NCBI GenBank assembly: GCA_001972305.1
Contig: BDDD01000895.1
Coordinates: 62,001-126,000 of the forward strand
Direction of reading: 5' to 3'
Source: Cephalotus follicularis
Taxonomy: Eukaryota; Streptophyta; Magnoliopsida; Oxalidales; Cephalotaceae
Length of the DNA stretch: 64,000 nucleotides
The notes under the pieces are model-generated. The model was not told where the DNA came from. It ran no database searches and saw only the letters and a list, made by a program, of their open reading frames with translations. Shown piece after piece: positions 1 through 29,623 of the stretch (position 1 is its first letter; each line of letters opens with the position of its first letter). The translations under genes were made by a program, and so were the position numbers.

Positions 1-697
1 ACCATGTCTAACAAAGTCTGATTCCTCCTTTCGGATACACCATTATGCTGTGGTGTTCCAGGAGGAGTCCACTGAGACAGAATTCCATTATCTCTAAGAT
101 AATGTAGGAATTCAGCTGACAGGTATTCTCCACCTCGGTCTGACCGAAGTATTTTAATGGATTTACCTGTTTGTTTTTCTACTTCAAGTATGAACTCCTT
201 AAATTTCTCAAAGGATTATGACTTGTGTTTCATCGGATACACATAACCATACCTAGATAAATCGTCGGTAAAGGTTTTGAAGTAGATATAACCACCTCGC
301 GCACTGACTGACATAGGACCACATACGTCAGTATGGACTAACCCCAGTAAGACCATAGCCCTTTCATTTGACCATAGAAGGGTGATTTGATCATCTTTCC
401 CAATAAACAGGATTCACAAGTTGGATAGGACTCTAAGTCCTGGATATCAAGGAGATCATCCTTAACCAACTGTGATAGTCTGGCATCACTAAGATGACCA
501 AGTCTACAATGCCAGGTATAGGTTTTATTTAACTCAGTTTCTCTTTGTCTTTTCTTATTACTTTGCTCTATGGATAGGACTTTGGATTGTACAGTATTTA
601 AGACAAATAATCCATTGTCGATAAAACCATTACCAACACAAACATTGTTAGAATAAACAAAACATTGAATGTCTTGGAATCTGAGCTCCAAGCCCAA
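1..697 (-). pseudogene. Copia A GAG-pre-integrase and integrase core (partial)
   Basis: The frame at 697-338 contains the GAG-pre-integrase signature WHCRLGHLS, then CESCLLGKM. From about 360 to the window edge the integrase core follows in another frame: a [14 protein letters not shown] first catalytic Asp region, then SDRGGEYLS and PQHNGVSERRNQTLLDMV, which holds the third catalytic residue (Glu). A one-base shift near 355-365 and an in-frame stop near 217 break it. The frame is offset from gag by another one-base shift near 745. The product would catalyse integration of the element's cDNA. Truncated by the window, not biologically. Confidence 0.85.
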
Positions 698-729
698 ATT
701 ACATAAGTATGAAACACTTATAATATTCC

Positions 730-1881
730 TTACAACGTTTGAAATGAAATAACAAGTGTCAATACATAACCATTACATAAAGTAATATCATAAATCCCTA
801 CAGCTTCAGCGATGATCCCAGATCCATCCCCAAGCCGTAAGTCCAAGTCTCCAGCTCTAAGCTTTCTAACTTTTCTTAGTCCCTGAAACGAATTGCAAAG
901 GTTAGTTCCACATCCAGTATCCAACACCCATGAAGAACTACTATTCAAAGCTAGATTTAGTTCAATCATGAACATACCTGATGTACTCGCACCATGCGGG
1001 TTATCAGCAGAGACAGTAGCAACAGCAACACGACAATCCTTTTTCCAGTGTCCGGTCTTACCGCACTGGAAACAAGCACCTTCAACAACTAACTTCTTCA
1101 TACGATCTTTGGCAACACCCCCACTAGGTCCAAGCTTCCCCTTTTTCTTCTTTTGCTTCTTCTTACCCTTGCCTTTTGTGTTGACAGGCATGAGCACGCC
1201 CTTCCCTTTACAGGAAGACGAGGCACTGCCCTTTCCTTGGGCAGACCTAGAAGGAAGAAGTAGGGAGTGGGTCTTTGACTTCCCAAAGTCAAAATCGGCC
1301 TCAGCCGTCCACAACATAGCAACCAGCTCAGGTAGAGTTACCTCTATCTTGTTCATGTGAAAGTTCACCAAGAAATGTGAGAACGACTTAGGAAAGGATG
1401 TCAGAATAAGATCTACATATAGATCATGGTCCATGACAAACCCTAATTGAGCCAACTGCTCAATCATGTCTATCATCCTCAATCCATGCTCATGGACTGA
1501 AGCTCCCTCTTGCATCTGAGCCTTAAAGAGTTTGCGAGATAGATTAAACCTTTGAGTCCTAGACTCAGTTCCATACACTTCCTGAAGGTTGAGTAGTATA
1601 GCAGATAAGGTCTCAATCTTCTCATTCTGACACTGAAGCTCAGGTGTCATCCCGAGAAGGGCAAGACATCTAGCCTGCTCGTCATCCTCTAGCCACTTGG
1701 CTAGTCGCTCACTCTCTTCGGGCGTCGGATCTTCACCCAGTGAAGGAGGCCCCCCAGTCATCACATAGGCCATTTTATTGGCCGTAAGGACAATCTTGAG
1801 GTTCCGGTGCCAATCGTTGAAGTTGGGCCCCTCAAGTTTGTTTGTCTCAAGAATGCGGGACATTGCATTTGATAAAGCCAT
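730..1881 (-). CDS. gag: Copia A gag polyprotein with protease start (383 aa open frame)
   Basis: Begins MALSNAMSRILETNKLEG, the usual start of a Copia gag, with the conserved FNDWHRNLKIVL segment at residues 21-32. Capsid-like (UBN2/retrotran_gag) sequence runs to about residue 200, then a Lys-rich linker (about 230-250). A CCHC zinc knuckle, CFQCGKTGHWKKDC (CX2CX4HX4C), lies near 270, and the aspartic protease motif WVLDTGC near 317. It packages element RNA into virus-like particles and starts the polyprotein. The open frame runs into a stop just before the pre-integrase segment, where a single-base shift near 745 has occurred. This is the best preserved gag in the window. The start is the first ATG after the leader and fits the family. 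Confidence 0.88.
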   Translation of the reverse strand: MALSNAMSRILETNKLEGPNFNDWHRNLKIVLTANKMAYVMTGGPPSLGEDPTPEESERLAKWLEDDEQARCLALLGMTPELQCQNEKIETLSAILLNLQEVYGTESRTQRFNLSRKLFKAQMQEGASVHEHGLRMIDMIEQLAQLGFVMDHDLYVDLILTSFPKSFSHFLVNFHMNKIEVTLPELVAMLWTAEADFDFGKSKTHSLLLPSRSAQGKGSASSSCKGKGVLMPVNTKGKGKKKQKKKKGKLGPSGGVAKDRMKKLVVEGACFQCGKTGHWKKDCRVAVATVSADNPHGASTSGMFMIELNLALNSSSSWVLDTGCGTNLCNSFQGLRKVRKLRAGDLDLRLGDGSGIIAEAVGIYDITLCNGYVLTLVISFQTL

Positions 1882-2065
1882 TTTATAGCAACCTAGATAA
1901 GGAAATATAACGTTGAGTCAGCATCTATTCCAGTTTTAATATATGACAACCATAACACTTGGTCTTTAGTGCTTATGGTCCCTCCCACTATTCTAATCGT
2001 ACCCATACCCCCATATGGAATTCGAGAAGTCCAACTTCCTAGTGGGGATTGGAATCCATCGCAAT

Positions 2066-2389
2066 CATATTATAGCCTCAGCTAGGGCATGACAAACTAT
2101 AATATATCCAATGGGTAGGCTTTCTTGCTAATTTGTATCCAATACAAGATCCAATCATAGTATTCGGCCTTAGATTCAATATGGCCTCAGTTAGGGCATG
2201 ACAAACCATCAGAATCTTAATAAGTCCAATACCCACAATTTTCATTGGAATGCACTAGTTTTAACACACACACGTAGGCGTCTCCAAGTGCTAAAACATA
2301 GCCACCCTTTGCGGTGCCCAACACCAACGTTGACATAATATCCCCAAGTTATCAGCCTTCGCTAGGGCATGACAAACCAACAACCCAGG
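2066..2389 (-). promoter_or_regulatory. Array of three leader hairpins with a constant 21-nt loop (Copia A)
   Basis: In sense (minus) order: hairpin alpha 2389-2343, beta 2217-2172, gamma 2106-2066. Each loop is 21 nt and starts TTTGTCATGCCCTA, ending CTGAGG (alpha: CGAAGG). Stems are unrelated in sequence but all pair. Alpha: CCTGGGTTGTTGG with CTGATAACTTGGG, 13 pairs including G-U. Beta: ATGG/CCAT plus AGATTC/GAATCT across a small internal loop. Gamma: TATATTATAG with CTATAATATG, 10 pairs. Element B keeps the same three in the same order. This is what I see by eye; a function (packaging, dimerisation, translation control) is inference. Confidence 0.7.
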
Positions 2390-3164
2390 AACACTACTCA
2401 ACGAAAATTGTGGAAGGCCACGGGGAACCACTCCATGGGTTCCTACGTTGAGACTTATTATTGCAGTGAGGGAATTTGTGGTCTCATGTTTTAATTACCG
2501 AGCCATTAATTAATTCATTGGTTTTATTAGCCAATTCCAATTAATTACGGCATAGCATGCAAGACGAGTATCTTATGCACATTGGACATATTTCTAAAAT
2601 ACGTCAATGGATTTGGCAAGGACAATATTAGTAATGACTTGATCCCAAAGTCACTACTAGGTCTTCCTAGGTGTAAAGATTTAAATCTATTTATTACATC
2701 AATAACCATGCATACATGGCCTTCAAAAGTCTTGTACTTCATTTCTCCCTTCCTCCATCTCTCATTGCATGGTCTTCTTTTACAAAAAGAACATTACATT
2801 TTCGAAAAGAAATTTACATTTAAAATTACAAGGAGAAGTTACAAAGGTAAGGAAAAATAAATGGTGCACGCAGGCACCTAATAACAGACCTTTAAAATAA
2901 TAAATATATAAATATCCAATCACACATAGAAAACCATAAACTAGGTCTATGTCCTTTTTCGGGCCATCCATTTTGCATAAGACTTATATTATATCCAATA
3001 TAATAAAACCACATAAAAACAAATTCCATAAATAATAACCAATTACTCAATTTAATTCAAGGATTGTTAATTGATCAAACTCCCACTAAATCAAGTAATG
3101 ATTTCAATTTTACAAGTGCCAAAATGTATAAAATCCAATTTTATTAATAAACAGTTTTTTTATT

Positions 3165-3415
3165 AAAAGACGTCGACGCTTATCAACAGCATCGACGTGT
3201 TTTCTGGAAATACTTGAACAAGGCGTCGATGCATAACAGGAGCATCAATGCGTTTCTCAAGAACAGTTGAAAACGGCGTCGACGTCCAACAAGAACATCT
3301 ACGCGTTTCACAAAAGGATGAACAAGACATCGACGTCTACCAATAACGTCGACGTCTTTCCTGGGAATATGAATAAGACATCGACGTCTACCAAGAACGT
3401 CGACGTCTATAGCCC
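3165..3415. repeat. GTCGAC-core repeat cluster in the Copia A leader
   Basis: At least eight copies or near copies of GCGTCGACGT/ACGTCGACGT with spacers of roughly 20-35 bp. The motif core is a perfect palindrome. Element B lacks it at the corresponding place and instead has a TGCGCA/GTGCGC-rich stretch near 11815-12255. Confidence 0.75.
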
Positions 3416-3654
3416 CCTGGGCAGTTTCTGCATTTCTAAAAATGCTGAAACCAATGGTTTAGACTATGGAATACCATTCTGGCATTCCAAAATGCACTAT
3501 GCATGTTCCAAACATAGTTCTAAACACATTAAAACAACATTCCCAGCACAAAAACACAATGAAATCCAATTTCATGCAATTTTCATTAAGGCACTTTGAA
3601 AATTTAGTTTGATCACAAAACACATCCATTAATTAAACCATTAATCAGTACCGC

Positions 3655-5547
3655 TACAAGCTTGAGTAGATTCCCCTTTGATGTTCTCCAAGTCTCAGGA
3701 ACATTGAGCAATCCAACCAGCAAAGATATAGTGTATGAACTCTCTCTCTCTCACTTAGCTTAGAAAAGGTATATTGATATTGACCAATGAAGTCAATGAT
3801 CCATCCACCCTAGATAAGCTCTTGCTTGGTGTATCACAGATGAAGAGAACACACTGCAGAGGAGAATTCAAGCTCTCTTGCCCAGCAAAACTCCTCAAAC
3901 TCACTTTTTCATTTTCTACAGAAATCCTTATCACTAGCCTCCTATATCTCTCTCTCACTCTCCCATTCACTTAGGATCATGGCCCTCACTCCTTGGGAGT
4001 CTGTGGCCATGATCCCCACGTTTCATAACATGCAAGAACAGGAGATGGTTGCTGGATATGAGAGAGAAAACGTGCCCACGAAGTGAGCTCGTGCACAGGT
4101 TGCACGTTCTGCTCAAAGATGTCGATGCCTTCCAAAAGACATCGACGCCCATGCAATGTGGCATTAAAGCACATCGACGCTTTCTAAAAGACATCAAAGT
4201 CTTTAAAAGAGATAAGCATCAACGTCTTTCTAAAAGACATCGACGCCTTTTGTCTGGCCAGTGAAGCATAAAGAGTCTAACTCTTTTAGTGATCTCATGT
4301 ACCCTTCAAATATTGGTTAAGTAAGATCAAGCATACGTGTTTCCACAAAATGCAAAATCCACACAACCGATATGTGACATCAAGACTTAATATGTCCAAC
4401 ATATCAAATATCTAATCATTATAAGGCAGGGACCCTTTAAAATCTTAGTTAAAACGTGAGGTGTTCATAAAATTACCGAAATACCCCTTGGGTCCGGTTT
4501 AGCCATTCTAAATGGTCCTTGACCAATTTAAATGCTCTCAGAATAATATCTAATATTATCCAGATGGAAAAATTAATCTAATTAATTTTCCCATAATTTA
4601 TTACACACCTCATTAACCCTAGATTTTCTAAGTCATCGGTTCACGTGTACTATAATCCCTTGTCATGCTTGGCCCCGATGGAGGACTAGGGTAAGGATAT
4701 GTGTCAACCCTAGATAGTACCTCAGTGGCTAAAATATCTGATCATTACTAGGACCTTTGGTAAACTCTCCGAAAATCTAATTTCCAGTCTACCTCAACCT
4801 TGGCCTAGGATTTCATAAGTCCAAAGTATAATCAGACCATAATAGGGCCGATCACCTTCGCTCAGGTGTGACAATCCCTTATTGCGCACTCACTTATATT
4901 CGTATAGATTCGATCATACCCAAAGACCACCCGATTGCCAACCCTTCGTAAGGACTGGGTAAGGTGGAGATCAAAGCATAACCATCTCCATACAATATAG
5001 AGTAGTTGCTCAAGTCTAAGGATCAGACGAGTTAAAGAACTCGCTAAGTGATAATCACTTATACACAACCGCAACAAGTAGGAGTCACTACTGACATGAG
5101 AATAGTGACTATCCAAATAGTGTCTCCTATGCGGGGCCTGTTCAGTGTACATGATCCCAGCGCGCACCCCGTATTTGCCCTAGAGTCCAACATAGATGGT
5201 AGTGAGAGAATCCATCCCCCGATTCCATGAGCAGGCAACATATGCGCAAGTCTATCCGGTTCACTAATGCCCACAAAGTGAACCTATGACTTGGAACAAA
5301 TTTGACATAAGGAGTAAGGTAACCAGTCTCACAGCCTCCATGCCAGGCATCCAACCTTATGTTAGGGCATCACTAGTATAAGTAGGTAATAAATAAACTA
5401 CTTCAATTATGTGATAAAATATAAGTGATATAGCCATAACAAATTTTAGCACGCATCATATATATATAAGGAATAAGATTGTTCCATACAAGATAAGATA
5501 TAATATGAGAACCCATCTAATGGCTTGTCGGGTCACTATATCTAACA
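3655..5547 (-). repeat. 5' LTR of Copia A
   Basis: The start at 5547 is set by TGTTAGATATAGTGACCC on the minus strand, matching the 3' LTR start of element B (TGTTAGAGATGGTGACCC after its polypurine tract). Sequence from about 4300 to 5200 is an inverted match to B's 5' LTR at about 6000-6900. The left end, near 3655, is uncertain because no clean TG..CA end plus primer site is visible. A second GTCGAC-type cluster lies inside at about 4115-4262. Confidence 0.7.
4112..4262. repeat. Second GTCGA-type repeat cluster, in the Copia A LTR
   Basis: Repeated units of the form aaAGACATCGACGcctttc or variants (ATCGACGC, ATCAACGTC) at 25-35 bp spacing, near the downstream end of the LTR. Related to the 3165-3415 cluster but more decayed. 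Confidence 0.6.
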
Positions 5548-5905
5548 TGCTGACCCATTGGATTATAATGTAATGGGTCAGGTACGGGTGGAGTTTCGCA
5601 GCAAGTAGAGGATTGAAGCACTGTGTAAGTCTCCTCCCTCCAATTGCAGTTCGAAGACCAAGTTATGTAAAAGTATATTGTATATTATTAACGACATGCC
5701 GGCCTGTGGCAGAGCTAGACTTTAAACCGTAATGTATAACTTTGGGTTTTATCCACATATTTTTATGGGTTGTTGGTTTTCCGCATGCACTTTTATCTAT
5801 TAAATTGTTTTTTAGTCAATCTGCTGAATGTTTGGTAAATTGAATGGTACTGCTAGTGGCGCGTCAAGCATTGGGGGATTGCCCCTTGGGGTTTGGGGTG
5901 TTACA
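5548..5905 (+). repeat. Fragment X: right end of another LTR between elements A and B
   Basis: The segment ends GGGTTTGGGGTGTTACA, a typical plant gypsy LTR end, and the B LTR resumes at TCAAAGTAGTTTAAATTT. This fits an LTR inserted in B's LTR and itself interrupted by A at 5547. It starts with a perfect hairpin, TGACCCATT (5551-5559) and AATGGGTCA (5572-5580), with a 12-nt loop. Its left part is not in the window. Confidence 0.5.
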
Positions 5906-7588
5906 TCAAAGTAGTTTAAATTTATTATCTGCTTACACATATGGTGCCCAATCACATCAAGGGTTGGATGTCGGGCCTGGGGGCTTTAAGAACGACTTCC
6001 TTATTCCCTGTGACTAAACCGTTCCAAGTCGGAGGTTCAGTTACATAGGGCATAATTGAACCAGTTTGATTTGCCGCGTTATGCTTGCTCTCATAGGTTG
6101 GAGGGTAAATTATCTCATTGCCACTTGCGCGGAACCCTAAAGCTAATGCAGGGTACGTGATGGGAGCATGTAAACTGAACCTGACCCACCATAGGAATGT
6201 TATTTGGATGGTCGCTAATCTCATGTCAGTTGCAATTCCTATCTGTGGCGATAATGTATAGGCACTTAGTGCCTAGCTGGACCTTAGAGGACCTGTCTAA
6301 TTCTTAGACATGAGCTATTGCTCTGCATTATGTAGAGGAAGTTGGACTTTGATCTCCGCCTTACCCAGTTCTCTCACGTGATTGGCAAACAAGAGGTTTT
6401 TGGGCCTCACTGAATCTGCATGAATGCAAGCGAGTACGCAAGATAGAATTGTCACACCCGTAGTGAGGGTGATAGGCTTTATGCTATCTGTATTCATTAT
6501 GAACTGAAAAATACATGTGCAGGTTACGAGGACAGGAAACTGGGTTTCCGAAAAAGTCCGCGGATAGTTGTAATGAGTTTACGGATGTATAAGCACTGAG
6601 CAAAACTAGGATTGACACGTATCCTTACCCTAGACCGTGGTTTGAGCTGGGATGATGAGGGATTATAGTGCACGGTAACCATCGACAAGAAAAGTACCGA
6701 ATGTGTCAGAAATGGACATGTGATGTGGGAAATTAATTTTGGATTAATTTCCACACATGAAATATGTTGAACATGATTTTAGGGTTGTTAAAATAGTCGG
6801 CGACTATTTACGGTAATTTTACCTGTGCGTAGGAGCGCTGGGGTAATTTACCGACGTTACTGATTTTATTCTGAACTTTCGGGTGCCGCCTGATTAATGG
6901 AAAGTGATATGTGTAGGAAACTGGTGGTAAATCTAGTTGATTAACTAGTATATATTAATGTAACACTAGTGGGACACTAGGCACCACATGGAAGTGGCAC
7001 ATAACCCCACTAAGCATCACATTAATATATAAAGAGAAGTTGAAAGTGGAGGAAGTGAGAGACACCTGTCATATGCATACTTGGAGCCGACCACATGTTG
7101 GAGGAATTAAGTGACACCCCTCATATGCATGCTTTGTGGCCGACCACATGTTGAGAGAATAAGAAAGTAATATAGGTTGGAAACATGTAGAATTCTATGA
7201 TGATTGCTCACTTTGGGGCTGGTCACATAAATAGAGAAAATGGGATATGTTTTGGTAACTTGAAAATCCATCTTGATAGTGCGTTTTCTTGTGGCTGCCG
7301 AGAGAAACGGAATGGGAGAAAAGAACATGGTGTCCTTCTTCAACATCCCTTTCTTCTTCCATTTAAGCTAAGCTTGGAGCCTAGTTTTCTTCACTTTCTC
7401 TTTCCACCACAATAATCAATATAGGTGCAGCTAAGCTTTGCATTGAAGATTAGCTTTATCTATTTTGATTTTAGATTAGGGTTTAGAAGCTTGATGGTGG
7501 CGACACTTTGGTATCTAAATTGATGTGCAAATCCGTGAGTTTTGTGGACTTTTAGAAGCTGGAAATTGCGCACTTAAAGAGCAGATTT
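5906..7588 (+). repeat. 5' LTR of Copia B, first segment
   Basis: The left boundary shares TAGTTTAAATTT with the 3' LTR copy at 20428-20438. The segment at 6090-6490 is an inverted match to the A LTR at 4850-5170, including a shared CTTTGATCTCCRCCTTACCCAG stretch. It is interrupted by solo LTR C at 7589. Confidence 0.75.
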
Positions 7589-8795
7589 TGTCACGCCCCG
7601 AAACGCGAGGGTAAACCCCCACGATCCGACGCGTGATATAAACCATCCGTTCAGTCCATTCATCATTTTATTCATACTTCACCAAGTGCTATATATAAAA
7701 AACTTTAAGTCAAAGTCATATACATCAGCGAAATAGTCAATTCAAATAAAAACTAACTCTTAAAATCTCCTGAAATTTCAGCATGAAGTATTCGTTTATC
7801 AAACTTAACCCCCTATAAAGAAAAACACATTTTTATATCTCCACACTCCCGAAGGAGGAATCAACAGTTTATGTATATATATGGGCTCAGCCCTCAGAAC
7901 CACAACTAAACCAGTAACATATCATTCTAATGCCTCAAGTGATGGGCCTGTTCCTGTTTAATATATCAACACACATATCATAAGCACTGCCATATCTCGG
8001 CATGTCGATAGCTGAATAAAACATATCTCTATAATGTCTTTTGATCTGTCTATTATACATAGCAAGTCTAATATAACTCAAGGCCATTTTTACAACTCAT
8101 ATAAACAAACCCATATCCATTACCATAAGTAAGATCATACACAATATGGCAAATCAAAACATGCTACAGAGAATCCATCCATCCCAGCCTGTCTCATTTA
8201 ATACAATTCATATAAGTAAATCCATAACATGATCATAACGAGACCATATACAACAACAACACAATCCCAACACCACTACTATTCAAGATCCAGCTTAGGT
8301 ATCCATCCATCTCGATCCATTTCACTGTGATCCATCACCTGGGCCTGAGCCTGACCCATTCCGCACACAGGGGAAATGGATCAGCAACATAATTTTGTGT
8401 AGGGTATACTATGTGCTCTGTATGCAATGTATGCACCAATGCAGTAGTGTGACAGTGTAACAGTATGCTCTGTAATGGTACAATGATAGTACAGTGCACA
8501 GTGAACAGTAACGGTGTATAGTAATATTGGCAGTGGTAGTAACAGTAACAGTGCAGTGCAATATATTAGTGCACAGTTGCAGACAGCTTCGATATACCAA
8601 CCATCCTTAAGCAGGGTATATCTAGCTAGTCATAATCACATCAAGGCTATAAGCCTGCAGACACTCCATAAACAATCAGTAATCATACATAGGGAAAAAC
8701 AATCCATAGGTCCATCCCACTTTCTACGCACTCTCTAAGTCGTAGATGAGTAGGGTTGAGATAACACTGACCACACAGTGCTTACAGTAGAGCTT

Positions 8796-8952
8796 GTTCA
8801 CAATGGTCCAAGCCCATATAGTCTCAACTGTTCACAATAGTCCAGCCTATATTGTCTCGACTGTTCACAATAGTCTAGCCTGTATTGTCTCGACTGTTCA
8901 CAATAGTCCAGCCTGTATTGTCTCGACTGTTCACAATAGTCCAACCTATATT
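8796..8952. repeat. 33-bp tandem repeat in LTR C
   Basis: About 4.5 copies of a unit containing ACTGTTCACAATAGTCCAGC followed by CTRTATTGTCTCG. The corresponding place in F1 and F2 has a different array built on CCGTAAAAACGGTCAGA. Confidence 0.85.
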
Positions 8953-10862
8953 ACGTGGTCTAACATTCATGACCTTCATGAAGGAGATGAGAGTCATGAA
9001 TGGGTTATCTCATTTGGTCTCAAATAATATCAGTCATAACAGTAATCATACAGTACTCGTACCTGTAATAGTATTTCAGTGGAAATGATAGGGACCTAAA
9101 AGATCAAGTGAGATCCACATCCGTCAAAACAGTTTATAAAACAATTTTCGGTAACAGTATTCAGTAACAGTTTTCAGTAACAGCTGTTGGTCCCTATCGA
9201 AGTTTGTAAAACAATGGAGAGGAAGTCCAATTGGATATCTGGGCCTAGACGTCCAAAAGGAGCTATCCTAACCATTCTTAAAACCCATTTGCATGAAAAC
9301 TCTTTTGTTGCATTGCTTCAAGAATCACTTTGAAAACTTGATTTAAGATTCAACAGTGTTAAAAGATATTCGCATAGGATACAAGGCCTTAGGGAGGGTT
9401 CCTATGGAATCAATGTAAAGAAGTAACAGTTTGAAATTGAAAATAGTAAGAAACAGTGACATTTCACAAAACAAGGCACTAAGCGTCGACTAGTTTAGTT
9501 GAAAAGTGTAAAGTGCCGACTATTCAGTTTAACACACAAAAGAGTCTATGGTTTTAAAAAGCATAAGTATAAAGAATTGACCACTCAGTTTAAAGGCATG
9601 AAAACATCGACGGGTCAGTTTTGAAAGTAGTAAAGTGTCGATGGTTTCATCAGAAACAACAGTTCGCAAAGCAGTTCACAAATCAATGGAACTATGTCCA
9701 AAATCCATGAAAGCCGTTTCAATGTCAGTAAAAATAGTTTATAGATCCACACCCAATTCCCACTCAGTACGATAACCGGTGAATAGTAGCAGTTTCAATA
9801 ACAGTATAACAGTCAATCAACACGTAATAACAGCAACACATTAATATTCACACAATTCACTGAAATTCAAGAATGCAGTGCAAATAGTATAACCTACCAG
9901 TTGAATCAGTAACAACAGTTGCGCTTGCTATTCAAGGCATTCTGTAGCAGAACCGACGAACCGTCAGCTCCTCCAAGCTTGAACCGGCTATCAAATCACC
10001 ATCGCTTGGGAATCCCCTATCCTTGATCACTTCATTCACACTGCATACGCAATACATTCCTGTTACACTTTACACATGAATCAAACACTGTCGCCACCGG
10101 AGCCCAGGCCAGATTTCGGCCAACACCCCATGGCTCTGATCGAGCCACCAATAGGCTCCACACTGGTTGATCTATTCATATATGCCAAATAACTGTCGTG
10201 ATTCAGCGCAAAATGCACAGTCACCACCGGTAGCGAGTTTGACTCACTGAGTTGACTCGTTGGTCATCTACGACTCCGGACGCTTCACAAATAGGCTTCC
10301 GCAATGCCTGTTCTATGCGTCTTTACCTGAGAATCGGTGAGAATTGACGCTGACGCGCCTTGCCGGAGATCTGGCCAGGTCGCTTAAGCTCTGGTCGCAC
10401 CACCGTTCACCTCAAAATCTTGTGATCATTCCATTGGTGGTCAAGACTTGCCATGACTCGACGTCAAATGCCGTGTCTCAGGCGGCATCGAGTCGAGGTG
10501 ACTCAGCTGACTCAGTCGGCACAAAACGAACGATTTACGCTGGAAAAACGCTTAAACCATCATCACCGTGGGTAGAGCTAGTCTCCTGGACGAGGACCGG
10601 CTCCAACCACGACGATAGAAATGACGAAAACGGGGTCGACAGTGACCCTTGGGTGATACAGAAAAGAAGAAAAGGGGGAGAGGGAGGAGGAGGAAAAGAG
10701 CTTACCGTTGGAAATGACGACTCTGTCCGACGAGCTCTCCTTTCCCGGCGTCGTGCCACACTGGCGTCTCCTTCTCTTTCTCTTCTCGCCCGCCCATGCT
10801 CTTCCTTCTATCTCTCTCGCAAGGCGCTGGCGCTAATGCGCCCGCTACCTTTGTGTTAAAGT

Positions 10863-10884
10863 GCCTGGCGTTTTAACGCCAGGC
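10863..10884. other. Perfect palindrome near the transcript start of LTR C
   Basis: Arms GCCTGGCGTT and AACGCCAGGC with a 2-nt spacer, just downstream (in minus sense) of a TATA-like ATATATAAATA stretch and before the CT-rich and GC-rich block. F2 has an unrelated 9-bp paired sequence at the equivalent place. Confidence 0.75.
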
Positions 10885-10955
10885 TCTTTTCTTTTCTTTT
10901 TTTATTTATATATCTATATAAATGCATATATATTATATATATTTGGGGCATTACA

Positions 10956-11482
10956 GATTTTGTGCACCAATTTTTGTTGTTTTGGAAGCTTGAAACTGAG
11001 ATCTAAGGTGACTATTTTTCTGGCTGTCCTTGCAACTTTGGAATGCAAGCTTGGAGGTGTACTTAATGTGCCTTTGCCGTGAGCATTTGTGGAGCACAAG
11101 TGTGAGGAAAATGGCTGCCTATTTTTGCGCACCTGAGACCATGAAGGCAGCGCATTGCTTGTGACATTGTAGTAACTTGGAACTCAATTAGGATGGAGAT
11201 CATGCCGCTTGAAGGAGGTGGCCAAAGATGGTGGAGCCTCCAAACGATGGTATGATTCCGTTCCTTATGTTTTATGCCGAATTGGATTCAGTTTTGTGTA
11301 TACATGCTTGACTAGTTAATTGGTTCAATTGAATATTAAACGGAGATCCTAGGACATTGATTTATTTATTAGGATGTTAGTATAATCCTTGACTTGGAGT
11401 CTTTGATGTTTTAAAAATCAAAATTATACACACTAGCATCCTAGGCCCAAAATTAACAGGAAACCCTAACAGTTTTCTAACA
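10956..11482 (+). repeat. 5' LTR of Copia B, second segment
   Basis: Resumes after the GATTT duplication of solo LTR C and ends TTTTCTAACA directly before the primer binding site. Confidence 0.8.
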
Positions 11483-11483
11483 G

Positions 11484-11497
11484 TGGTATCAGAGCCA
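11484..11497 (+). promoter_or_regulatory. Primer binding site of Copia B
   Basis: TGGTATCAGAGCCA, complementary to the 3' end of plant initiator methionine tRNA, one base after the LTR end. Confidence 0.93.
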
Positions 11498-13297
11498 TCA
11501 GTTTTAATTTCAATTGGACTTTAGTTTCAATTTTTGTGGCTGTTTTGGAATGATTATTGTGGCTGTATATTGGTTTAAATTCCCTCCCTTTATTGTTTTA
11601 TAACTATGCAATTGGATTATGAAGTGTGTTTGTGTGTTGGTTGGACCTATTTTGCGAACTAGTGTTGGAGACCAACTGGTGACTGTTTTTTGTGTCCAGA
11701 ATCATGTACTGGGGGCTGTTTTGTAACATGGACAACAACACAGGCTCCTAAGTATAGTTATAGATCATTGACAGGGCCTTGGAAGCTCAACGGACTGAGT
11801 TTTGAAGTGTTACAAGTGACTGCGCGCAAAATGCACGTGTGCAAAATTTTTCTGCACATAGTTTCCTGTAGGAGTTTACCTACTGTCAAGTGGACGGGCA
11901 ATAGAACTACTGTTGTCTGCAAGGCAGCATATATGCCAGCATGGAAGCCGTGCATTTTGGGTAGAAACTTGATGCATATGGATAAGTAGTTCGCGTGCGG
12001 AATGCTTATAACACGCATTGTTTCCTACAGAGTTTTAAGCAGAGTTTTCTACAGACTTCCTACACTATTTTTTGCACACCAGCCTTGAGTGAAGGCAGAC
12101 TGCGCAGGCAGTGCGCAGGTGCTGTGAGCGCAGGCAACACACACACAGCGAGTAAGTGCTGGGAACATGACATATATGCAAAACACACTGTGCGCGTGCA
12201 GGGCACGTAGCGCATACCTATCATGTGCGTGCACGTAGCGCACGCGCACTGTTTTTGAATTTTTTTTGAAATCTAATATTTTTTTCTTAAACCAAGGGGA
12301 AACTATGATTTAATTAATCTAGTGGGAGTTTTACCGGAATATTGGCGCACTTGTTAAAGTTATTTTGATTAGCCATCAGAAATGGAAATTATTTGTGTTT
12401 ATTCAAAGTTTATATTAGATATAATTTTTGAATGTCTTATGCATGATGGTAAGCTAAGGGACTTGACCTAATTTTTTGGTTTCTTTTGTGAATGTTTAAT
12501 TTTATTTATTACTTTAATGGTTTATTTGGTTTATAATAAGGTTGCTTGCGAGCACCACATTTCTTATATTTTAATTCCTCTTTAGGATAGGATCTCTTCT
12601 CCCTGAAATTTGTATTCTCTTCTTTAACTCAAATGTATTCTTAGAAATTTCATTTTGAAACCAAATAAAGAATGACAAAGGAGGAAGAAGTGGAAAATGA
12701 AGAAAATTACAAGACCAATGAAGGCCATGAATGCATGGTGCATTTTGTAATAAAATAGAACTAAATATCTCATCTAGGAGACCGAGTGATGGCATATGGT
12801 TGATGCACATCACTTATAGTTTTAGTCCCTAGCCAAGCCATTTTATTTCTATGTGGGACATAGGTTGCGTGAGATGGATGGTCAAAACACGTCAAGCATG
12901 CTCAGTCGCAATTAATTGGAATTGGCTAATGCAACCAATCAATTAATTAAAGGCTTGGTAATATTAAAATGTGAGACCCAAATTCCTCCAAATTTCAAAT
13001 TATAAGTCTCAACACTAGGGACACAAGTGAGTGACCCGACATGGCCTTCCACGATTCTCATTGAGTGGCATGGACAGGTTGTGGGCGGTTAGCCACAACT
13101 AAGGTCTGCGTTCTGTCGGGTGTCATATCAATGTCAGTGCTAGGCATTGCAAGGAGATGTATATGTTTTGGCACTTGGACACGCACATGTGTGGGTGTCA
13201 AAACAGGCGCATATCTTTAAGGATTGTGGGTAAGGACTTATACTGGCTCTAATGGCTTGTCGAGCCACAAACGAGACCATACTGAGCTGGTAGGCTG
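11498..13297 (+). other. Copia B untranslated leader (before the D insertion)
   Basis: No coding sequence seen. A GTGCGC/TGCGCA-rich stretch at about 11815-12255 sits where element A has its GTCGAC cluster. The rest is AT-rich and aligns with A's leader. Two of the three leader hairpins lie at 13073-13117 and 13245-13288. The leader continues after solo LTR D at 16775-17340. Confidence 0.65.
13073..13288 (+). promoter_or_regulatory. Leader hairpins alpha and beta of Copia B
   Basis: Alpha (13073-13117): GACAGGTTGTGGG pairs with TCTGCGTTCTGTC, 12 of 13 positions with wobbles, around a 19-nt loop. Beta (13245-13288): ATGG/CCAT plus GGCTC/GAGCT around a 21-nt loop starting CTTGTCGAGCC. The stems differ from those in element A at nearly every position, yet pairing is kept. 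Confidence 0.65.
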
Positions 13298-14444
13298 TGT
13301 AATACCCAGGTACAGTTTTTTAGAGGATCTTCTTTGTCATTTGCTTGTTAAGGCCTGGTTTGGGTTCTATTATTTTCCTTGATCCATTTGGGAGTCCTCT
13401 CTTGTGCAATATTAAGGCCTAAAGTGGTGTTTATTGGGAAGAGTCATTTATTTTGACTAAGCCCATAAGTGAAGTTTACAAGGGAAGCTAACGATTTCCA
13501 ATGTGAAAGGACGTGTGTCAGGGAGAGTGTGTGAAATGATATATCTGGCGCCTTGGGCAGAAGAAAGAAAAAAAAGGAAGAAGTCAAGGAGAAGTAGGTA
13601 GGAAGAAGAAGAAGGAAGAAAAGGGAAGACACCGAGTGAACTCTGTCTGGGTGAGTTGTGAGTACTCCCTGTGACATTCAACCTTCCTCTTTCGTTGGAT
13701 CCTTACTTCTGGCGTGACCGAGCATCTCCTCTACAAGTCTTGTTTCTCTTCTTCTCCATTTCTTCTGTAGTCAAACGTGGTTGAAGGTGATTCTCACTGA
13801 TCTTTGATGTCCTTACCCGAGTGTGGTATGGTGGATTCGGAGTTCCTTAGTACAATGAGCAGTGAGTTGGTATCCCTAGTGCGTTTGACATCAGAGATGG
13901 CGAAATGTGGATCCGCTGGTAGATCCGAAGCTCTAGATGGGCTGTTCGAGTTCTTGGAATGTGAAGAATCCAGTGGGGAGATTCAGAGTTCCAAGGAACT
14001 GGTAAGCGTTGCAGGAGCTGGTCTTGAGAGACCCAGGTATGTGATGTTTTACTGTGGTTTCATTTATGGTTATACTAACTTAACCATTTTGTGTTGAGGT
14101 GTTTTGTGAGTTTGTGTTTTAGCATTTAGATTCTGGATAGATGAGGTTCCTCAGATCTTATGTGACGAATACAATTGTTATGGCCATGTAAGATGCGTGT
14201 TCTTGCCAGGGAGTTAGTGCGATGTGCGTCCTAACAGAGGAGTCAGTTTGATGTACATCCTCTGTTGAGCAGTGCATGTTAAGCTTTCCTTGCAGAGTAG
14301 TCCATGTCGGGCGTTCCTTGGTGAGCAGCGCATGTTAAACGTCTTCTTGAGCATTTACCAGTTGAAGTGTCTCCTCGGTAGTGGCTGAGCGGTGATTCGC
14401 GGGCCCCTTGGATGAAACTAACGCTAGGTGATTGCTAATGAGGT

Positions 14445-14610
14445 AGCTCCTCGATCGATGTTCATATGGTGGAGTGCTGAGCTAGTGATTGCCGATGGGA
14501 GTGGGCTTGCGTAGCTCCTCGATCGATGTTCATGTAGTGAGGTGCGCCAAACTTGTGATTGTCGAGGAAGGTGTGCTCACGTAGCCCTTCTATAGATGTT
14601 CATGCGGTGC
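14445..14610. repeat. Roughly 75-85 bp repeats in LTR D
   Basis: Three imperfect copies around GTAGCTCCTCGATCGATGTT then CATGYRGTG, with TGTGATTG downstream. The same unit, less often repeated, is in the I and K LTRs near 49325-49500 and 63365-63540. Confidence 0.7.
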
Positions 14611-14879
14611 TCTGGAAGTGGGTATCTATATGCGTATATGAGGGATGTGTACAGTCCTATAGCCCATGACCACATTGATGGATCTTCAACAGAGTTGTTA
14701 TTTGTGCTTGCCGAGGTGGTTTCGGCTATGGAAGTGTGAGAGTAAGAATTTTTCCTTAGTTTTGCCCATCCTCCCGACCTAGGACCAACTCGGTCCCTGA
14801 AGATGTTTTATCGGGTGAGCCCTGATGGATCCCTTGGGTATTGGGCCGGGGTGAGATTTCATCTCCTTAGTGTAAGTTG

Positions 14880-15290
14880 AGTGTTGGAGAGACCCCGGGC
14901 ATTGCTAGTGTGATGGTCTCCCCGGGCATTGCTGGTGTGGTGGTCTCCTTGGGCATTGCTAGTGTGATGGTCTCCTCGGGCATTTGCTTGTGCGGTGGTC
15001 TCCCCAAGCATTTGCTGGTGTGATGGTCTCCTCGGACGTTGCTTGTGCGGTGGTCTCCCCAAGCATTCGCTGGTGCGATGGTCTCCTTAGACATTGCTTG
15101 TGCGATGGTCTTCTCGGGCATTTGCTTGTGTGTTGGTCTTCTTGGGCATTTGCTTGTGTGATGGTCTTCTCGGGCATTGCTGGTGTGGTGGTCTCCCCGG
15201 ACATTGACTTGTGTGGTAGTCTCCTTGGGCATTGCCTTGTGTGGTGGTCTCCTTGGACATTGATGTATGTGGCGTCTTATCAGGTGTTGA
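14880..15290. repeat. About 38-bp minisatellite in LTR D
   Basis: About ten imperfect units of the form GGGCATTGCTRGTGTGRTGG then TCTCCYYG. The related segment of LTR I (about 47860-47945) has only a few diverged copies of a GGRCATGYCCTC motif, so the array expanded in D's lineage. In-frame reading gives repetitive peptide on the minus strand; I take that as a by-product. Confidence 0.9.
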
Positions 15291-15691
15291 GTAAAGCTTC
15301 TTGGGCATTAAGCAAAGCTTCTCCAACGTCATGATAAGTTAAGCCTCCTCGGGCGTTGACTGAGGGAAGTGGCTTCTCTGGTGTTTTGTTGAAGATGCCT
15401 TCTCGGGTGTGAATCTCCTCGGGCTACCTGGTTTGGTGCTGGGAGTGGGTTGGCATCTGTAGATGGTTTGATATCCGTGGATGGGCTGTTGTTCCGTGGA
15501 TGGTCTGGTACTCTGTAGTGGGCAGGTGTGCATGGCTTCTCTGCGGGCAGGTAGTGGAATTGTTGTGGCATTCTACATCTTGCTGTTGTGGATGATGCCT
15601 GAAGGTAGACATGCCAAACTTGCTGAACTATGATGCAAGGGTGCGTACCCTTGAAGTGCACAGCTCCCGGGCAGGCAGTGCTTGTTGTTCT

Positions 15692-15873
15692 GGTACCTTG
15701 TAGTGCTTGTGGCCTGGTACCTTGCAGAGGTTGTGGTATGGTTTGTTGTCTGGCACCTTGTAGAGGTTGTGGTCTGGCACCTTCCAGTGATGGTGGTCTG
15801 GCTTGTGGCCCGGTACCTTGCAATACTTGTGGTCTGACATGTTACAGAGGTCCTCGTCTGGCATATTGCAGAG
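15692..15873. repeat. 12-bp-based array (24 and 36-bp units) in LTR D
   Basis: Units such as GGTACCTTGTAGTGCTTGTG plus GCCT (24 bp) alternate with 36-bp units that add GGYTTGTKGYCT-like 12-mers. Unit lengths are multiples of 12. Confidence 0.7.
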
Positions 15874-16774
15874 GTGGTGATGAAGGGTCTAGAGAGAAAA
15901 AGGTTTGTAGACGCCTAGGGGTTTCATACGTTGATCGTGGTAAGAAGTGCTCCTTGTAGAAGGGCAGAGGAGAAGGTCTGTGGAGGTTGTGTTTCCTCTG
16001 ACCTTGGACCAAGGTGTTAAGTGATCACGTGTAGAACATGAGGGTGCTCTCCTCGGGTCTAAGTGACACGGTGCATGTTGGTGTCTTGGAAGACAATGTT
16101 AAGTGATCACATGTAGAACACGTGGGTGCTCTCCTCGGGTCTAAGTGATACGGTGCGTGTTTTGGAAGACAGTGTTGAGGATTTAATGAAATGTTGAGTT
16201 GAGGCTCTCAGCTCGTTGAAGTCCTCTGCTCCCTTGTATAATACATCCTTGGAGTCGTCCTCATGTTTTGTTGAGCAGTGGCTTCTGGTTTTCTAGTGTG
16301 GCTTCTCTGCCATGTATGGCCGGTGTGGTTATCCTTTCATTCTTAGTAATTGCTAAGCTATGTAACCCTGTATGTAATGAACTTCATACTAGTGGAACCT
16401 CATGGATGATTGAGGAAGTGTACGTAGGCATTTTCTGTGCCGAACCACTATAAAAATGGCTGTCTCATTCTTCTCTTTCCTTTATCTTGTATGTGTGAAT
16501 GCATGAAGGCTATGTCCAAGATTGTTGTAGGCCTGGTCCTCTACCGTGGAGGAAGAGGATAGGCAAGACCTTGGCGCGTGGTGCCAGTCCGTTGCAGTGG
16601 GTAGCCGAGGTGCAGGTGGACGTCCAGTCCTCTGCTCTCGTGATGCGCTTGGAAAAAAAATTTAAAGGAGAAGATGAGAGAAGGAAATTCACATGACCAG
16701 TTTGTGCCATGGGTTATGGTTAAAGTCATCCCAATTTTCTTGTAACGGCACGGGTTTCGGAGTGGGTCGTTACA

Positions 16775-17340
16775 TGCTGAATCTATAATTGGATCTTACA
16801 TGATGAGGGTGGAACCCTGCACAGTGTAAATTGGCGAGCGAGCCTACCCATCTCAGGTATTATGGTTTGTCATGCCACAACTGAGGCCGTAATTTCTTGG
16901 ATGGATTCCAATCCCCACTAGGAGGTTGGACACCTCACGAATTCCACACGGGGGTGTGGAATACAATTAAAATAGTGGGAGGAACCATAAACACTAAAAA
17001 CCAAGTGCTATGGTAGTCACATAAAATTTGGAATATAAGCTAACTTTTACTATTAGTTTCCTTATATTAGGTTGCTAAATATGACTACTATCACCCTTAT
17101 TCTTGAGACCAACTAACTCAAAGGGCCTAAATTTCTTAAATTGGCAAACGTACACTAGGCGGGCAATCGGTACTAAGTACTTCTACCTCACCTAAAGACT
17201 TGCAGAAGTAGGCATGGTGCCTGATTACAACGCTAGCACGAAAATATGGAGAACCGCTCCGAAATACTTCTATAAGAGTTATATGGCACAATAGACTAGG
17301 TTTTTGTGGTTCAAATAATCTCGATAGCTCTTTAGGATAA
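16775..17340 (+). promoter_or_regulatory. Rest of the Copia B leader, with hairpin gamma at 16856-16896
   Basis: Hairpin gamma: GGTATTATGG pairs with CCGTAATTTC (9 of 10) around a 21-nt loop starting TTTGTCATGCCACAA. The following sequence (GGATTCCAATCCCCACTAGG, GAGGAACCATAAACACTAA) is the direct counterpart of 1960-2060 in element A, read on the other strand. Confidence 0.7.
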
Positions 17341-17960
17341 GAATGACTGAGCGAACTTCAGACCATTCAAGTGGACTGATGATGTGTGATTTAATTGAGC
17401 TGGGAGCTCAATTGGATCACGTCATGGAATTTATAGTGACGTCCCATCCTCAGATATTTTCACAGTTATGTAAGAACTTCCGTATGTCTAATGTGGAGTT
17501 CATACTACCGGAGCTAGTTATTATGCTTGGGACTGCGAGAGCCAACTTTGTCCCTAAAAAGTCAAAGGTCCCAATTAGTTAACATCTTTATCTTTGGACT
17601 ACCTTAAAAGGTGGTGCTGTGGCTTCCTATTGCTAGGGAAGACCTTAGCTATCGAAGCTAAGAAGAATAAGAAGAAGGCTAATGCGTTTGGAGTGTAAGG
17701 GAAAATTTCCAAAGATATGATGAGAAAATTTATAAGGACCATACCTCCTTCCTCTGTGGTATGAAGGGGCACTAGAAAAGGGAATGACAAGAGTTCATTG
17801 CTTACACTTCCACTGATCCACCTCAGGGAGGTGCCTCAGGACCTTGGAGGTTCTATACAACTAAGAGCTCATAAAGAAGTGGATCTAAGGCTTTGCATTG
17901 GATCTAGGATCACTGCAAAAGCTATAGAATTTATGAATTGTTAGCATATAAAGTTTTTTA
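17341..17960 (+). pseudogene. Copia B gag remnant
   Basis: The frame at 17343-17582 gives MCDLIELGAQLDHVMEFIV and SHPQIFSQLCKNFRMSNVEF, aligning with residues about 135-205 of element A gag. The N-terminal part of gag is missing. A decayed zinc knuckle follows (about 17742-17795): first Cys replaced by Ser, WK turned into a stop plus K, last Cys lost. LRLCIGSRITAKA near 17890 matches A's LDLRLGDGSGIIAEA. No functional product is possible. Confidence 0.8.
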
Positions 17961-20438: not shown

Positions 20439-21529
20439 TGTAATGCCCTAAAATTTTATGCAAATAATTGTAATAAATAATATTGTGAAATGGTATTTGG
20501 GTAGAACTTAGGCCATGGAAAGGAAGGGGAGAGTTTTGGGCCGGCCATTTTGAGAAAGGCGGTTTGTAGTGCATTCTAGAGTCTTCCACTCAAATAAATG
20601 GGATATTTGTGTGAAGTGGGACCTCATTGTCTCACAATTTCGGGAAGAGACAAAGCAATGCCTTTGTTAACAGAGTTCGACACTTTCTCCTTTTGCTCTC
20701 ATTTATCTTCTCATCCCCGAAGCTAGAGGGAGACAGTGAGAGCGCGAAATTGAGAGAGGAAGATTGGTTTCGTGTAAAGAAGGAGTCGTCAGACTTGCAA
20801 CAGGGAGTAGAACTAGAAGGAAATAGAAAATCGAGGGTTTTACAGAAATTCTCAAAGATCGGCAATAATCAATTGATATTGAGGTAGGTTCTACTCCAAT
20901 CCTTGAACTGATATATGTTTATATATATATATATGCTGTAATGTTGTATACTGATGTAATTTGATATGAGGTGCTGCTATAAATTGTTAGATCAAGATTA
21001 TGATTGGGATCGATCACTGGAGCTTGTGACTCCATCAAATCGAATGATTGATTGCCTGTATGAGTCTTGAATTGTTGAAGTGTTGTTTAACAACTATATT
21101 GTATTGTCAAGCCCTTAGGCTATCGACTCCTCTAATCAGAACGTTACCGCTTTAGTGGAATTGTACCTCAGTACTAGAAGGCAGACCTAGTACTTGAAGG
21201 AAATCGTATTGTCATAATTCGCCTATGCGTTAGACACTCAGTCTAAGTCAAAACAGACCTCAGAGGAAAGAGGTCACTGTGCCACAAGACTATAGAGCAT
21301 AATTGTCCATGAGGTTACAGAGAAGACCTGCACCACAAGACTGTAGAGAATACTTAACCATGAGATGATAGAGAAGACTTGCGCCACAAGACCGCAGAGC
21401 AAACTTGTCCATGAGGCGGCAGAGAAGACCTACGTGCCAAGGCTGCAGAGCAAACCTGTCCACAAGGCTGCAGAGCAGACCTGCGCCGAGGTCGTAGAGA
21501 ATAGCAGACCTGCGCTTATGGTATCGAGC
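20439..21529 (+). repeat. LTR E with a primer-site-like end
   Basis: Starts TGTAATGCCCTAAAAT at 20439 inside the B LTR and ends near 21516. TTATGGTATCGAGC (21516-21529) follows, a close match to the initiator-Met primer site arrangement seen in element H. This makes it the 5' LTR of a gypsy element whose internal part is replaced by LTR F1. No coding sequence is seen. It carries a 51-bp tandem array in its last 250 bp and a short (TA) run near 20922. Confidence 0.6.
21262..21510. repeat. 51-bp tandem repeat at the end of LTR E
   Basis: About 4.5 units. Each runs GAGAAGACCTGCRCCACAAG, then ACYGYAGAGMAWACTTRWCC and ATGAGRYRRYA. The last unit merges into the primer-like site. Confidence 0.85.
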
Positions 21530-22732: not shown

Positions 22733-22880
22733 AGCCGTAAAAATGGTCAGAGCCCATAATATAGTGGTAAAGCCGTAAAAACGGTCAGAGCCCATAGAGT
22801 GGTAAAGCCGTAAAAACGGTCAGAACCCATAGTATAGTGGTAAAGCCGTAAAAACGGTTAGAACCCATAGGCGCCGGTAA
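22733..22880. repeat. CCGTAAAAACGGTCAGA tandem array in LTR F1
   Basis: Four units of about 30-40 bp: TAAAGCCGTAAAAACGGTCA then GARCCCATAG with an optional TATAGTGG. The core CCGT-AAAA-ACGG is itself an inverted repeat. Confidence 0.85.
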
Positions 22881-23566: not shown

Positions 23567-23812
23567 GCGTCGATGCTTAGCCCCGGGCATGAACAGTTTT
23601 AAAAAGCACAAGTATAAAGCATCAACGGTTTGTTTTAAAGCATAAGGCGTTGACTATTTGGTTTAACTCATAAAAGCGTCGACTGTAAGTTTAACACATA
23701 AAAACGTCGACGGTTTTAGAAAGCATGAGTATAAAACATCGACTACTCAATTTAAGATATGAAAGAGTCGACGGGTTTAGTTTTGAAAGCATAAAGTGTC
23801 GACGGTTTTGAT
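23567..23812. repeat. GTCGAC-core cluster in LTR F1
   Basis: Eight copies or near copies (GCGTCGAT, GCGTTGAC, GCGTCGAC, ACGTCGAC, ACATCGAC, GAGTCGAC, GTGTCGAC) about 25-45 bp apart, separated by AAAGCAT/TTTAACWCATAAAA spacers. Confidence 0.8.
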
Positions 23813-24909: not shown

Positions 24910-24912
24910 GCA

Positions 24913-24924
24913 TGGTATCAGAGC
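24913..24924 (+). promoter_or_regulatory. Primer binding site of G
   Basis: TGGTATCAGAGC, three bases after the LTR end: initiator methionine tRNA type. Confidence 0.93.
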
Positions 24925-29591: not shown

Positions 29592-29623
29592 TGTAGGGAT
29601 AAATTCGAGGACGAATTTTCTTT

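What the first reader, a model, noticed from the sequence alone, without database searches (positions are those of the whole stretch)
2066..2389. Three leader hairpins with a constant 21-nt loop and freely varying, base-paired stems
In Copia A the leader holds three copies of a loop, TTTGTCATGCCCTA(G/A)C(T/G)(G/A)AGG, each closed by a stem of quite different sequence: CCTGGGTTGTTGG/CTGATAACTTGGG, AGATTC+ATGG/CCAT+GAATCT, and TATATTATAG/CTATAATATG. Copia B has the same three in the same order (13073-13117, 13245-13288, 16856-16896), with stems changed again but still pairing: GACAGGTTGTGGG/TCTGCGTTCTGTC, GGCTC+ATGG/CCAT+GAGCT, GGTATTATGG/CCGTAATTTC. Conserved loop plus covarying stem is the classic sign of selected RNA structure. 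The triple arrangement suggests a binding platform, perhaps for Gag packaging, dimerisation or translation. I know of no description of it; the function is inference.
Basis: seen in the sequence. Interest (0 to 1): 0.85.

Follow-up and report, generated by a model that had tools for sequence, protein, structure and literature searches.

The report
Retrotransposon leader RNA with repeated caps
A plant jumping gene carries, just before its first gene, a folded RNA region whose hairpins wear the same short cap on stems that change sequence but keep pairing, probably a tag by which the element recognises its own RNA.

Summary
Copia-type element A (minus strand; host very probably Cephalotus follicularis) has three leader hairpins with near-identical 21-nt caps. 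B has the same three; 21 of 32 stem pairs differ and 19 of those still pair. Cap or cap-like sequence occurs 10,336 times in the host genome (control 43). Among 70 loci found by a flank outside the hairpins, 54 show all three at up to 4 mismatches, mostly at fixed spacing. The hairpins belong to a larger fold with a fourth hairpin and closing helices. On a tree of 79 leaders, pairing was kept in 108 of 140 changes on internal branches, 202 of 435 on end branches (p=1e-10), and 868 of 1571 in misaligned internal controls. Internal branches favour G-U over A-C (49:9 against 123:92), pointing to the transcript strand. In one subfamily h3 keeps its stem but carries another cap. Selected RNA structure is well supported. 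Function is inference: most likely a genomic-RNA recognition, packaging or dimerisation platform. An all-pairs covariation screen found nothing significant. My searches found no published description. No other plant genome could be searched.

The parts
2343..2389 (-). hairpin h1 of element A (13-bp stem, 21-nt cap); its lower stem extends to about 2330-2401
   Evidence: (E 2.3e-12; a training sequence of the model)
2172..2217 (-). hairpin h2 of element A (AGATTC/GAATCT and ATGG/CCAT, same cap)
   Evidence: (E 9e-5, cap and inner stem)
2056..2114 (-). hairpin h3 of element A (core 2066-2106, outer CCAUU/GAUGG)
   Evidence: (E 3.4e-9)
2258..2297 (-). fourth leader hairpin hM (GUUUUAGCAC/GUGUUAAAAC) with a second cap type, between h1 and h2
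2312..2326 (-). small hairpin SLb (UGGUG/CACCG; CAGUG/CACUG in some B-type copies)
2233..2413 (-). long-range helix P1 (CCACAAUUUUC 2403-2413 with GAAAAUUGUGG 2233-2243) enclosing h1, SLb and hM
2166..2419 (-). closing helix P0 (GGCCUU 2414-2419 with AAGGCC 2166-2171), also enclosing h2
730..1881 (-). open reading frame holding gag of element A (PF14223 gag, zf-CCHC), ATG about 175 nt after the end of h3
1893..1910 (-). 3'-splice-site-like tract ending 11 nt before the gag ATG
   Evidence: (AG in 59 of 70 loci); splicing itself not tested
3740..5547 (-). LTR of element A as matched by L031 (86%); a recognisable PBS is missing after it
4855..4874 (-). cap-like 20-mer (X1) inside A's LTR; kinship to the leader caps uncertain
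   Evidence: not found by covariance model R1
13073..13117 (+). hairpin h1 of element B
   Evidence: (E 2.9e-5)
13245..13288 (+). hairpin h2 of element B (diverged cap)
   Evidence: not found by model R1
16856..16896 (+). hairpin h3 of element B
   Evidence: (E 1.4e-4)
6449..6468 (+). cap-like 20-mer (X2) in the part of B homologous to A's LTR
   Evidence: not found by model R1
11484..11495 (+). primer-binding site TGGTATCAGAGC of element B
   Evidence: label tRNA-iMet recalled

Best explanation
The leader of this copia-type family folds, in the transcript, into a conserved domain of about 360 nt between the primer-binding site and gag: a closing helix, a long inner helix, and hairpins h1, SLb, hM, h2 and h3, of which h1, h2 and h3 present the same cap on stems kept only for pairing. 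Shown by calculation: base pairing of this fold, in the sense strand, was favoured in the lineages that gave rise to several copies, and the three-hairpin layout is kept in most sampled copies. Inferred: the repeated cap is a recognition unit, most likely bound by the element's own Gag (zinc-knuckle) and/or pairing cap to cap between two RNAs, so that genomic RNA is selected, dimerised and packaged. Also inferred, and weaker: an acceptor-like site just before gag, and 52 upstream AUGs in one leader, suggest that translated mRNA may be spliced, leaving the domain only in the unspliced genomic RNA.
For: Pairing kept in 108 of 140 internal-branch changes against 202 of 435 terminal ones, p=1.3e-10; cap hairpins alone 56 of 73 against 95 of 205, p=9e-6; slid controls on internal branches 868 of 1571, p=3e-7 against the real pairs; double changes 12 against 0.6 per slide. 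New G-U against A-C from Watson-Crick pairs: 49:9 internal, 123:92 terminal, p=1e-4. Pair counts: h1 94.3% paired, 41 cells changed on both sides against 9.2 shuffled; h3 92.6%, 30 against 11.2; percent paired and covariation score beat all 500 shuffles in both. All three hairpins in 54 of 70 loci found by a flank, commonest offsets -318 (39 of 56), -147 (57 of 64), -38 (61 of 66). LTR, PBS, leader, hairpins and gag lie in that order in L031. Letters after GCC change together: CTA in all three hairpins in 51 of 79 rows, A first in all three in 11 of 15 B-type rows, AAA in h1 and h2 of 3 cap-swapped rows (12 of the 15 B-type rows were chosen by a pattern with A there in one cap). Acceptor-like AG in 59 of 70 loci; 52 ATGs in a 1786-nt leader.
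Against: No test of binding, packaging or dimerisation was possible. The all-pairs covariation screen found no significant pair. Part of the internal/terminal difference is not due to pairing: slid controls also keep more on internal than terminal branches (0.55 against 0.49; main group alone 0.63 against 0.50). B-type rows alone: 33 of 54 against 63 of 140, p=0.055, and not different from slid controls (p=0.16); the main group alone shows no double change on internal branches. Some measures in the pair counts are weak: pairs with both sides changed in h1 reached by 55 of 500 shuffles, further pair types in h3 by 126 of 500. Caps as a whole are not significantly more constrained than the rest of the leader (internal/terminal 0.304 against 0.393, p=0.14); low rates at single cap positions were picked after looking. 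MFE z-scores are modest: mean -2.6 sense, -1.7 antisense in 14 leaders. The one gag-pol deletion junction tested occurs once in the genome, so no mobilised derivative was shown. No convincing splice donor was found, and the acceptor tract is less conserved than the 60 nt before it (0.87 against 0.95).
Confidence: 0.5

Rival explanations
1. Translation control: the domain just upstream of gag is an internal entry or ribosome-bypass structure, needed because the 1.8-kb leader is full of AUGs; many main-group caps even hold AUG-CCC-UAG or UAA.
For: 52 ATGs upstream of gag in L031; h3 ends about 175 nt before the gag ATG in A; the start-stop pair is seen in many main-group caps.
Against: The start-stop pair is absent from many B-type and from the cap-swapped copies; the acceptor-like site suggests the leader may be spliced out instead (itself unproven).
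Confidence: 0.17
2. Nuclear export or splicing control: repeated caps recruit a host export factor so that unspliced genomic RNA leaves the nucleus, as transport elements of some retroelements do.
For: [quoted passage not shown] acceptor-like site next to the domain.
Against: No host factor or shared motif was tested; Rfam searches gave nothing relevant.
Confidence: 0.13
3. DNA-level function: the repeats are enhancer or protein-binding sites in the leader DNA, as reported for the Drosophila copia leader and as proposed for palindromic repeats of Sirevirus LTRs.
For: Such a leader enhancer is in the reference list, and the LTR repeats in passages, of PMC2829016.
Against: Stems differ freely and keep pairing; G-U is preferred over A-C on internal branches, which double-stranded DNA would not distinguish.
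Confidence: 0.06
4. Priming, strand transfer or end-to-end circularisation: caps pair with one another or with the cap-like sequence in the LTR to shape the RNA for reverse transcription.
For: Main caps contain AGCU, whose four positions have 6 internal changes against 14.8 expected from letter-matched columns, P=0.028, tested after looking; a cap-like 20-mer lies in the LTR; Ty1 RNA ends pair directly (PMC4974528, passages).
Against: The LTR 20-mer is not found by the covariance model; AGCU is not kept in all copies.
Confidence: 0.12
5. No function: chance hairpins in decaying repeats.
For: Many sampled copies carry private, pair-breaking changes; the all-pairs screen was negative.
Confidence: 0.02

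Closest known systems
5' cis-acting RNA domains of yeast Ty1 and Ty3 and retroviral packaging/dimerisation leaders
   Same: Structured RNA at the 5' end of an LTR element; a CCHC Gag is present here. For Ty1 the packaging sequences lie within 580 nt of the 5' end, and recognition of cis-acting sequences by Gag is implied (PMC4974528, passages).
   Different: Ty1 is described with a pseudoknot (PMC4974528, passages) and kissing loops (PMC5454406, title and start of abstract in a listing); no triple of equal caps on different stems is mentioned in what I saw.
BARE (barley copia element) dimerisation and packaging signals
   Same: A plant copia element with an untranslated leader; the paper mentions conserved dimerisation and packaging signals in BARE2 (PMC3735527, passages).
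   Different: The passages give no structure; I could not compare sequences.
Multiple dispersed packaging signals of RNA viruses (MS2 and others)
   Same: Several stem-loops that share a recognition motif while precise sequences vary around it (PMC6281560, passages).
   Different: Here the set is compact, of nearly fixed number and spacing, and in a retrotransposon leader; coat/Gag binding is not shown.
RNA transport elements of mouse IAP and MusD
   Same: Structured cis-acting RNA in LTR retrotransposons (PMC12786077, passage).
   Different: They act in nuclear export by named host factors; no sequence or structure comparison was made here.
Sirevirus conserved non-coding motifs
   Same: Conserved repeated motifs in non-coding parts of plant copia elements (PMC2829016, passages).
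   Different: Those repeats are palindromic boxes upstream of the TATA box in the LTR (in some elements also near the ENV gene); these are leader hairpins with constant caps and changing stems.

Membership tests
Retroviral/Ty-type packaging-dimerisation leader | structured RNA between PBS and gag, in the sense strand | tested here: met
Retroviral/Ty-type packaging-dimerisation leader | specific binding by Gag or NC | not testable with these tools
   only the presence of a CCHC knuckle was seen
Retroviral/Ty-type packaging-dimerisation leader | needed in cis for RNA to enter particles; kept in gag-less derivatives that still move | tested here: inconclusive
   one deletion junction tested, single copy
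Retroviral/Ty-type packaging-dimerisation leader | domain absent from spliced mRNA | tested here: inconclusive
   acceptor-like AG in 59 of 70, no clear donor, no RNA data
Dispersed packaging signals with a shared motif | several stem-loops with a common motif and variable stems | tested here: met
Dispersed packaging signals with a shared motif | coat/Gag affinity of the motif | not testable with these tools
   none
RNA transport element | recruits an export factor | not testable with these tools
   none
Any Rfam RNA family | covariance-model match above the family's gathering score | tested here: not met
   all 11 matches up to E 10 in window 1-20000 and the 1 match up to E 5 in 1883-2460 are below their gathering scores
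Ty1-copia LTR retrotransposon | copia gag, LTRs, PBS TGGTATCAGAGC | tested here: met
   gag in A; LTR pair and PBS in the relative L031; PBS in B; A itself lacks a clear PBS

The most novel reading that the evidence does not exclude
A plant retrotransposon uses an interchangeable cap cassette: one recognition loop is mounted on three (with hM four) unrelated stems, the caps change in step within each subfamily, and a cap can be transplanted from one hairpin to another while the stem stays, together forming a multivalent tag by which its Gag or a sister RNA tells unspliced genomic RNA from everything else.
Probability: 0.3. Interest if true: 0.75.

Novelty: new variant of a known kind. Interest (0 to 1): 0.6.

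Why it matters
How plant LTR retrotransposons pick their own RNA seems poorly known: a 2025 review of their life cycle contains none of the terms packaging signal, dimeriz-, hairpin, stem-loop or secondary structure in its main text; its one mention of a kissing loop concerns a mouse export element (PMC12786077, term counts and passages). A defined domain with very many natural variants, including a cap swap, makes the question testable. The internal-versus-terminal branch test, with slid controls, also gives a simple way to see selection on RNA folding in an old, abundant repeat family.

Tried and rejected
All-pairs G-test with APC against tree-based simulations (79 rows, 401 columns): no pair at E below 0.05; observed maximum 77.5, first simulation 73.9. 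I suspect the deep split between groups swamps it.

Extra constraint on caps as a whole: not significant. Low internal rates at G3, G8, C9, A13-T16 and G19 were chosen after looking and may be confounded by decay on end branches.

LTR 20-mer as a further copy of the hairpin: similar letters, but not found by the covariance model; kept only as a lead.

Mobilised gag-less derivatives: the one deletion copy examined (C4:388663) has a junction found once in the genome, so it looks like an ordinary deletion.

Other plants: no plant collection could be searched. The viral contigs pattern scan gave 0. The own genome cannot be searched with the covariance model. Genome-wide counts of A-U, G-C, G-U and A-C at one h3 pair, and of the cap swap, were asked for but did not complete.

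Rows dropped before counts: one search used 14 of 17 chosen leaders (3 lacked the anchor). One search dropped 26 of 124 leader matches as too short, then 19 of 98 as duplicates or with N, leaving 79 including window A; window B was not in that set because its leader is split. One search counted hits with up to 6 mismatches (59, 67, 66 and 56 with all three); at up to 4 the counts are 56, 64, 66 and 54, and I use the latter. L031-L050 and L121-L140 were chosen by cap patterns, the last 20 by a pattern with A after GCC, so only the 70 anchored loci (the first 70 of 1716 in contig order) bear on presence, and A in one cap of the last 20 is by choice. L031 and L032 were picked as examples.

Full report
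What is there. Element A lies on the minus strand, with an open frame holding gag at 730-1881 (Retrotran_gag_2 E 1.3e-21 and a CCHC knuckle). In a protein search the first 24 hits, 65-86% identical, are copia gags; 23 bear the name Cephalotus follicularis (some cut short) and one name is cut off before the organism. The host assembly has 1.577 Gb in 9746 contigs. One of its contigs, C30, has exactly the length (1,426,819) of the contig that holds Cephalotus protein P0020, so the host is very probably Cephalotus follicularis. In the related copy L031 the order is: 2.2-kb LTR, PBS TGGTATCAGAGC directly after it, 1786-nt leader with the three hairpins, gag. A's LTR matches at 5547-3740 but A has lost a recognisable PBS; B has a PBS at 11484. 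A and B stand head to head and can be aligned over large parts from the LTR to near gag.

The hairpins. The three caps of A are 21 nt and differ at up to 2 letters from the first. In the window A pairs 32 of 32 and B 30 of 32 stem positions; 21 pairs differ, 19 of them still pair, 7 with both sides changed. A pattern covering the leader caps and the LTR 20-mer occurs 5229 + 5107 times in the genome, against 25 + 18 for the reversed pattern. To sample without using the cap, I searched a 21-nt flank 3' of h3: 1716 copies, control 3. Of the first 70 loci, 56 have an h1, 64 an h2 and 66 an h3 at up to 4 mismatches, and 54 have all three; the commonest offsets are -318 (39 of 56), -147 (57 of 64) and -38 (61 of 66). 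Some apparent absences are B-type h1 hairpins whose cap is shorter than the pattern (L051).

The larger fold. RNAalifold on 14 varied leaders gives a closing helix P0, a long helix P1, h1 with a long lower stem, a small hairpin SLb, a fourth hairpin hM, then h2 and h3. hM carries a different cap. The four of 70 loci that lack the usual h3 cap (L094, L096, L101, L104) keep the h3 stem with another cap; in the three of them that were aligned it is close to the cap of hM. As the four lie on four different contigs, the swapped form appears to have multiplied.

Selection on pairing. I placed 79 unique leaders on a tree and followed every change at 81 pairs in eight helices. Internal branches hold changes that arose while the lineage still moved; terminal branches should be mostly decay after insertion. 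Starting from paired states, pairing was kept in 108 of 140 internal changes and 202 of 435 terminal ones (p=1.3e-10). The cap hairpins alone give 56 of 73 against 95 of 205 (p=9e-6), the other helices 52 of 67 against 107 of 230 (p=6e-6). Sliding the partners by 2-12 columns gives 868 of 1571 internal and 1995 of 4112 terminal, so a small part of the difference is unrelated to pairing, but the real pairs stand out on internal branches (p=3e-7). Without B-type rows it is 54 of 66 against 139 of 295 (p=2e-7); in the main group alone 48 of 56 against 133 of 279 (p=6e-8), without any double change on internal branches; in B-type rows alone 33 of 54 against 63 of 140 (p=0.055; against slid controls p=0.16). 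Double changes on internal branches number 12 in all, against 0.6 per slid control.

Which strand. From Watson-Crick pairs, internal branches acquired 49 G-U and 9 A-C pairs; terminal branches 123 and 92 (p=1e-4). On the opposite strand a G-U would be an A-C mismatch, so the selected fold is in the sense strand.

Pair counts on single hairpins. h1 (66 rows): 94.3% paired, 41 cells changed on both sides against 9.2 in shuffles, score 0.459 against 0.320. h3 (56 rows): 92.6%, 30 against 11.2, 0.179 against 0.136. Weaker measures: pairs with both sides changed, 6 in h1 (55 of 500 shuffles as high) and 5 in h3 (5 of 500); further pair types, 13 of 500 in h1 and 126 of 500 in h3. At one h3 pair, G-C is seen in 26 rows, A-U in 23, G-U in 3, other in 4. 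These shuffles ignore relatedness; the branch test uses the tree.

Results against. An all-pairs covariation screen gave nothing. Whole caps are not significantly slower than the rest of the leader. Folding energy z-scores are modest, mean -2.6 sense and -1.7 antisense in 14 leaders. Rfam has no relevant match. The LTR 20-mer and B's h2 are not found by the model.

Caps change together. The letters after GCC read CTA in all three hairpins in 51 of 79 rows. A stands first in all three in 11 of 15 B-type rows (3 of these 15 were not chosen by a pattern with A), and the 3 cap-swapped rows show AAA in h1 and h2. This may reflect a shared partner, common descent, or exchange between hairpins by template switching: L102 has an h2 whose 5' stem is that of h3.

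How it may work. Position between PBS and gag, multiplicity of one cap, and a CCHC Gag make a packaging or dimerisation platform the likeliest reading. The leader of L031 has 52 upstream ATGs, and an acceptor-like tract ends 11 nt before the gag ATG in A, with AG in 59 of 70 loci, though the tract as a whole is less conserved (0.87) than the 60 nt before it (0.95). If mRNA for Gag is spliced there, only unspliced RNA would carry the domain. No good donor was found, so this step is conjecture.

Literature. Search listings and passages of PMC3735527, PMC12786077, PMC2829016, PMC6281560 and PMC4974528 showed no such domain in a plant element; BARE2 is said to have conserved dimerisation and packaging signals, without details in the passages seen. 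Most subscription papers are not in the library, so an earlier description cannot be excluded.

Noticed in passing
window about 13331-16780: Insertion of about 3.45 kb splits B's leader between h2 and h3; it holds a repeat array with spacings of 28, 55 and 83 nt, and parts recur near 48.0-49.5 kb and 62.1-63.6 kb.
   Followed up: partly
window 21519-35992: Direct pair 21519-24282 / 33243-35992 at 95.4% with PBS TGGTATCAGAGC at 24913: probably an LTR element with LTRs of about 2.75 kb; diverged copies of parts of that repeat lie within 7589-10180.
   Followed up: no
window 38215-46986: Direct pair 38215-40674 / 43529-45955 at 97.3%, with further repeats beside it.
   Followed up: no
window 3648-3739: Element A has no recognisable PBS where L031 has one; about 420 nt of L031 are replaced by about 90 nt.
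   Followed up: partly
window 5046-5060 (minus) and 6260-6274 (plus): A small hairpin in the LTR reads AAGTGA-TTA-TCACTT in A and AGGCAC-TTA-GTGCCT in B, with several paired changes; the LTR RNA may also be folded.
   Followed up: no
L094, L096, L101, L104: A subfamily keeps the h3 stem but carries another cap; in L096 and L104 it holds the palindrome ACGTGCACGT and resembles the cap of hM.
   Followed up: partly
window caps at 2076-2096, 2185-2205, 2356-2376 (minus): The caps of A contain a start-stop pair (AUG CCC UAG or UAA); it is absent from many B-type copies.
   Followed up: partly
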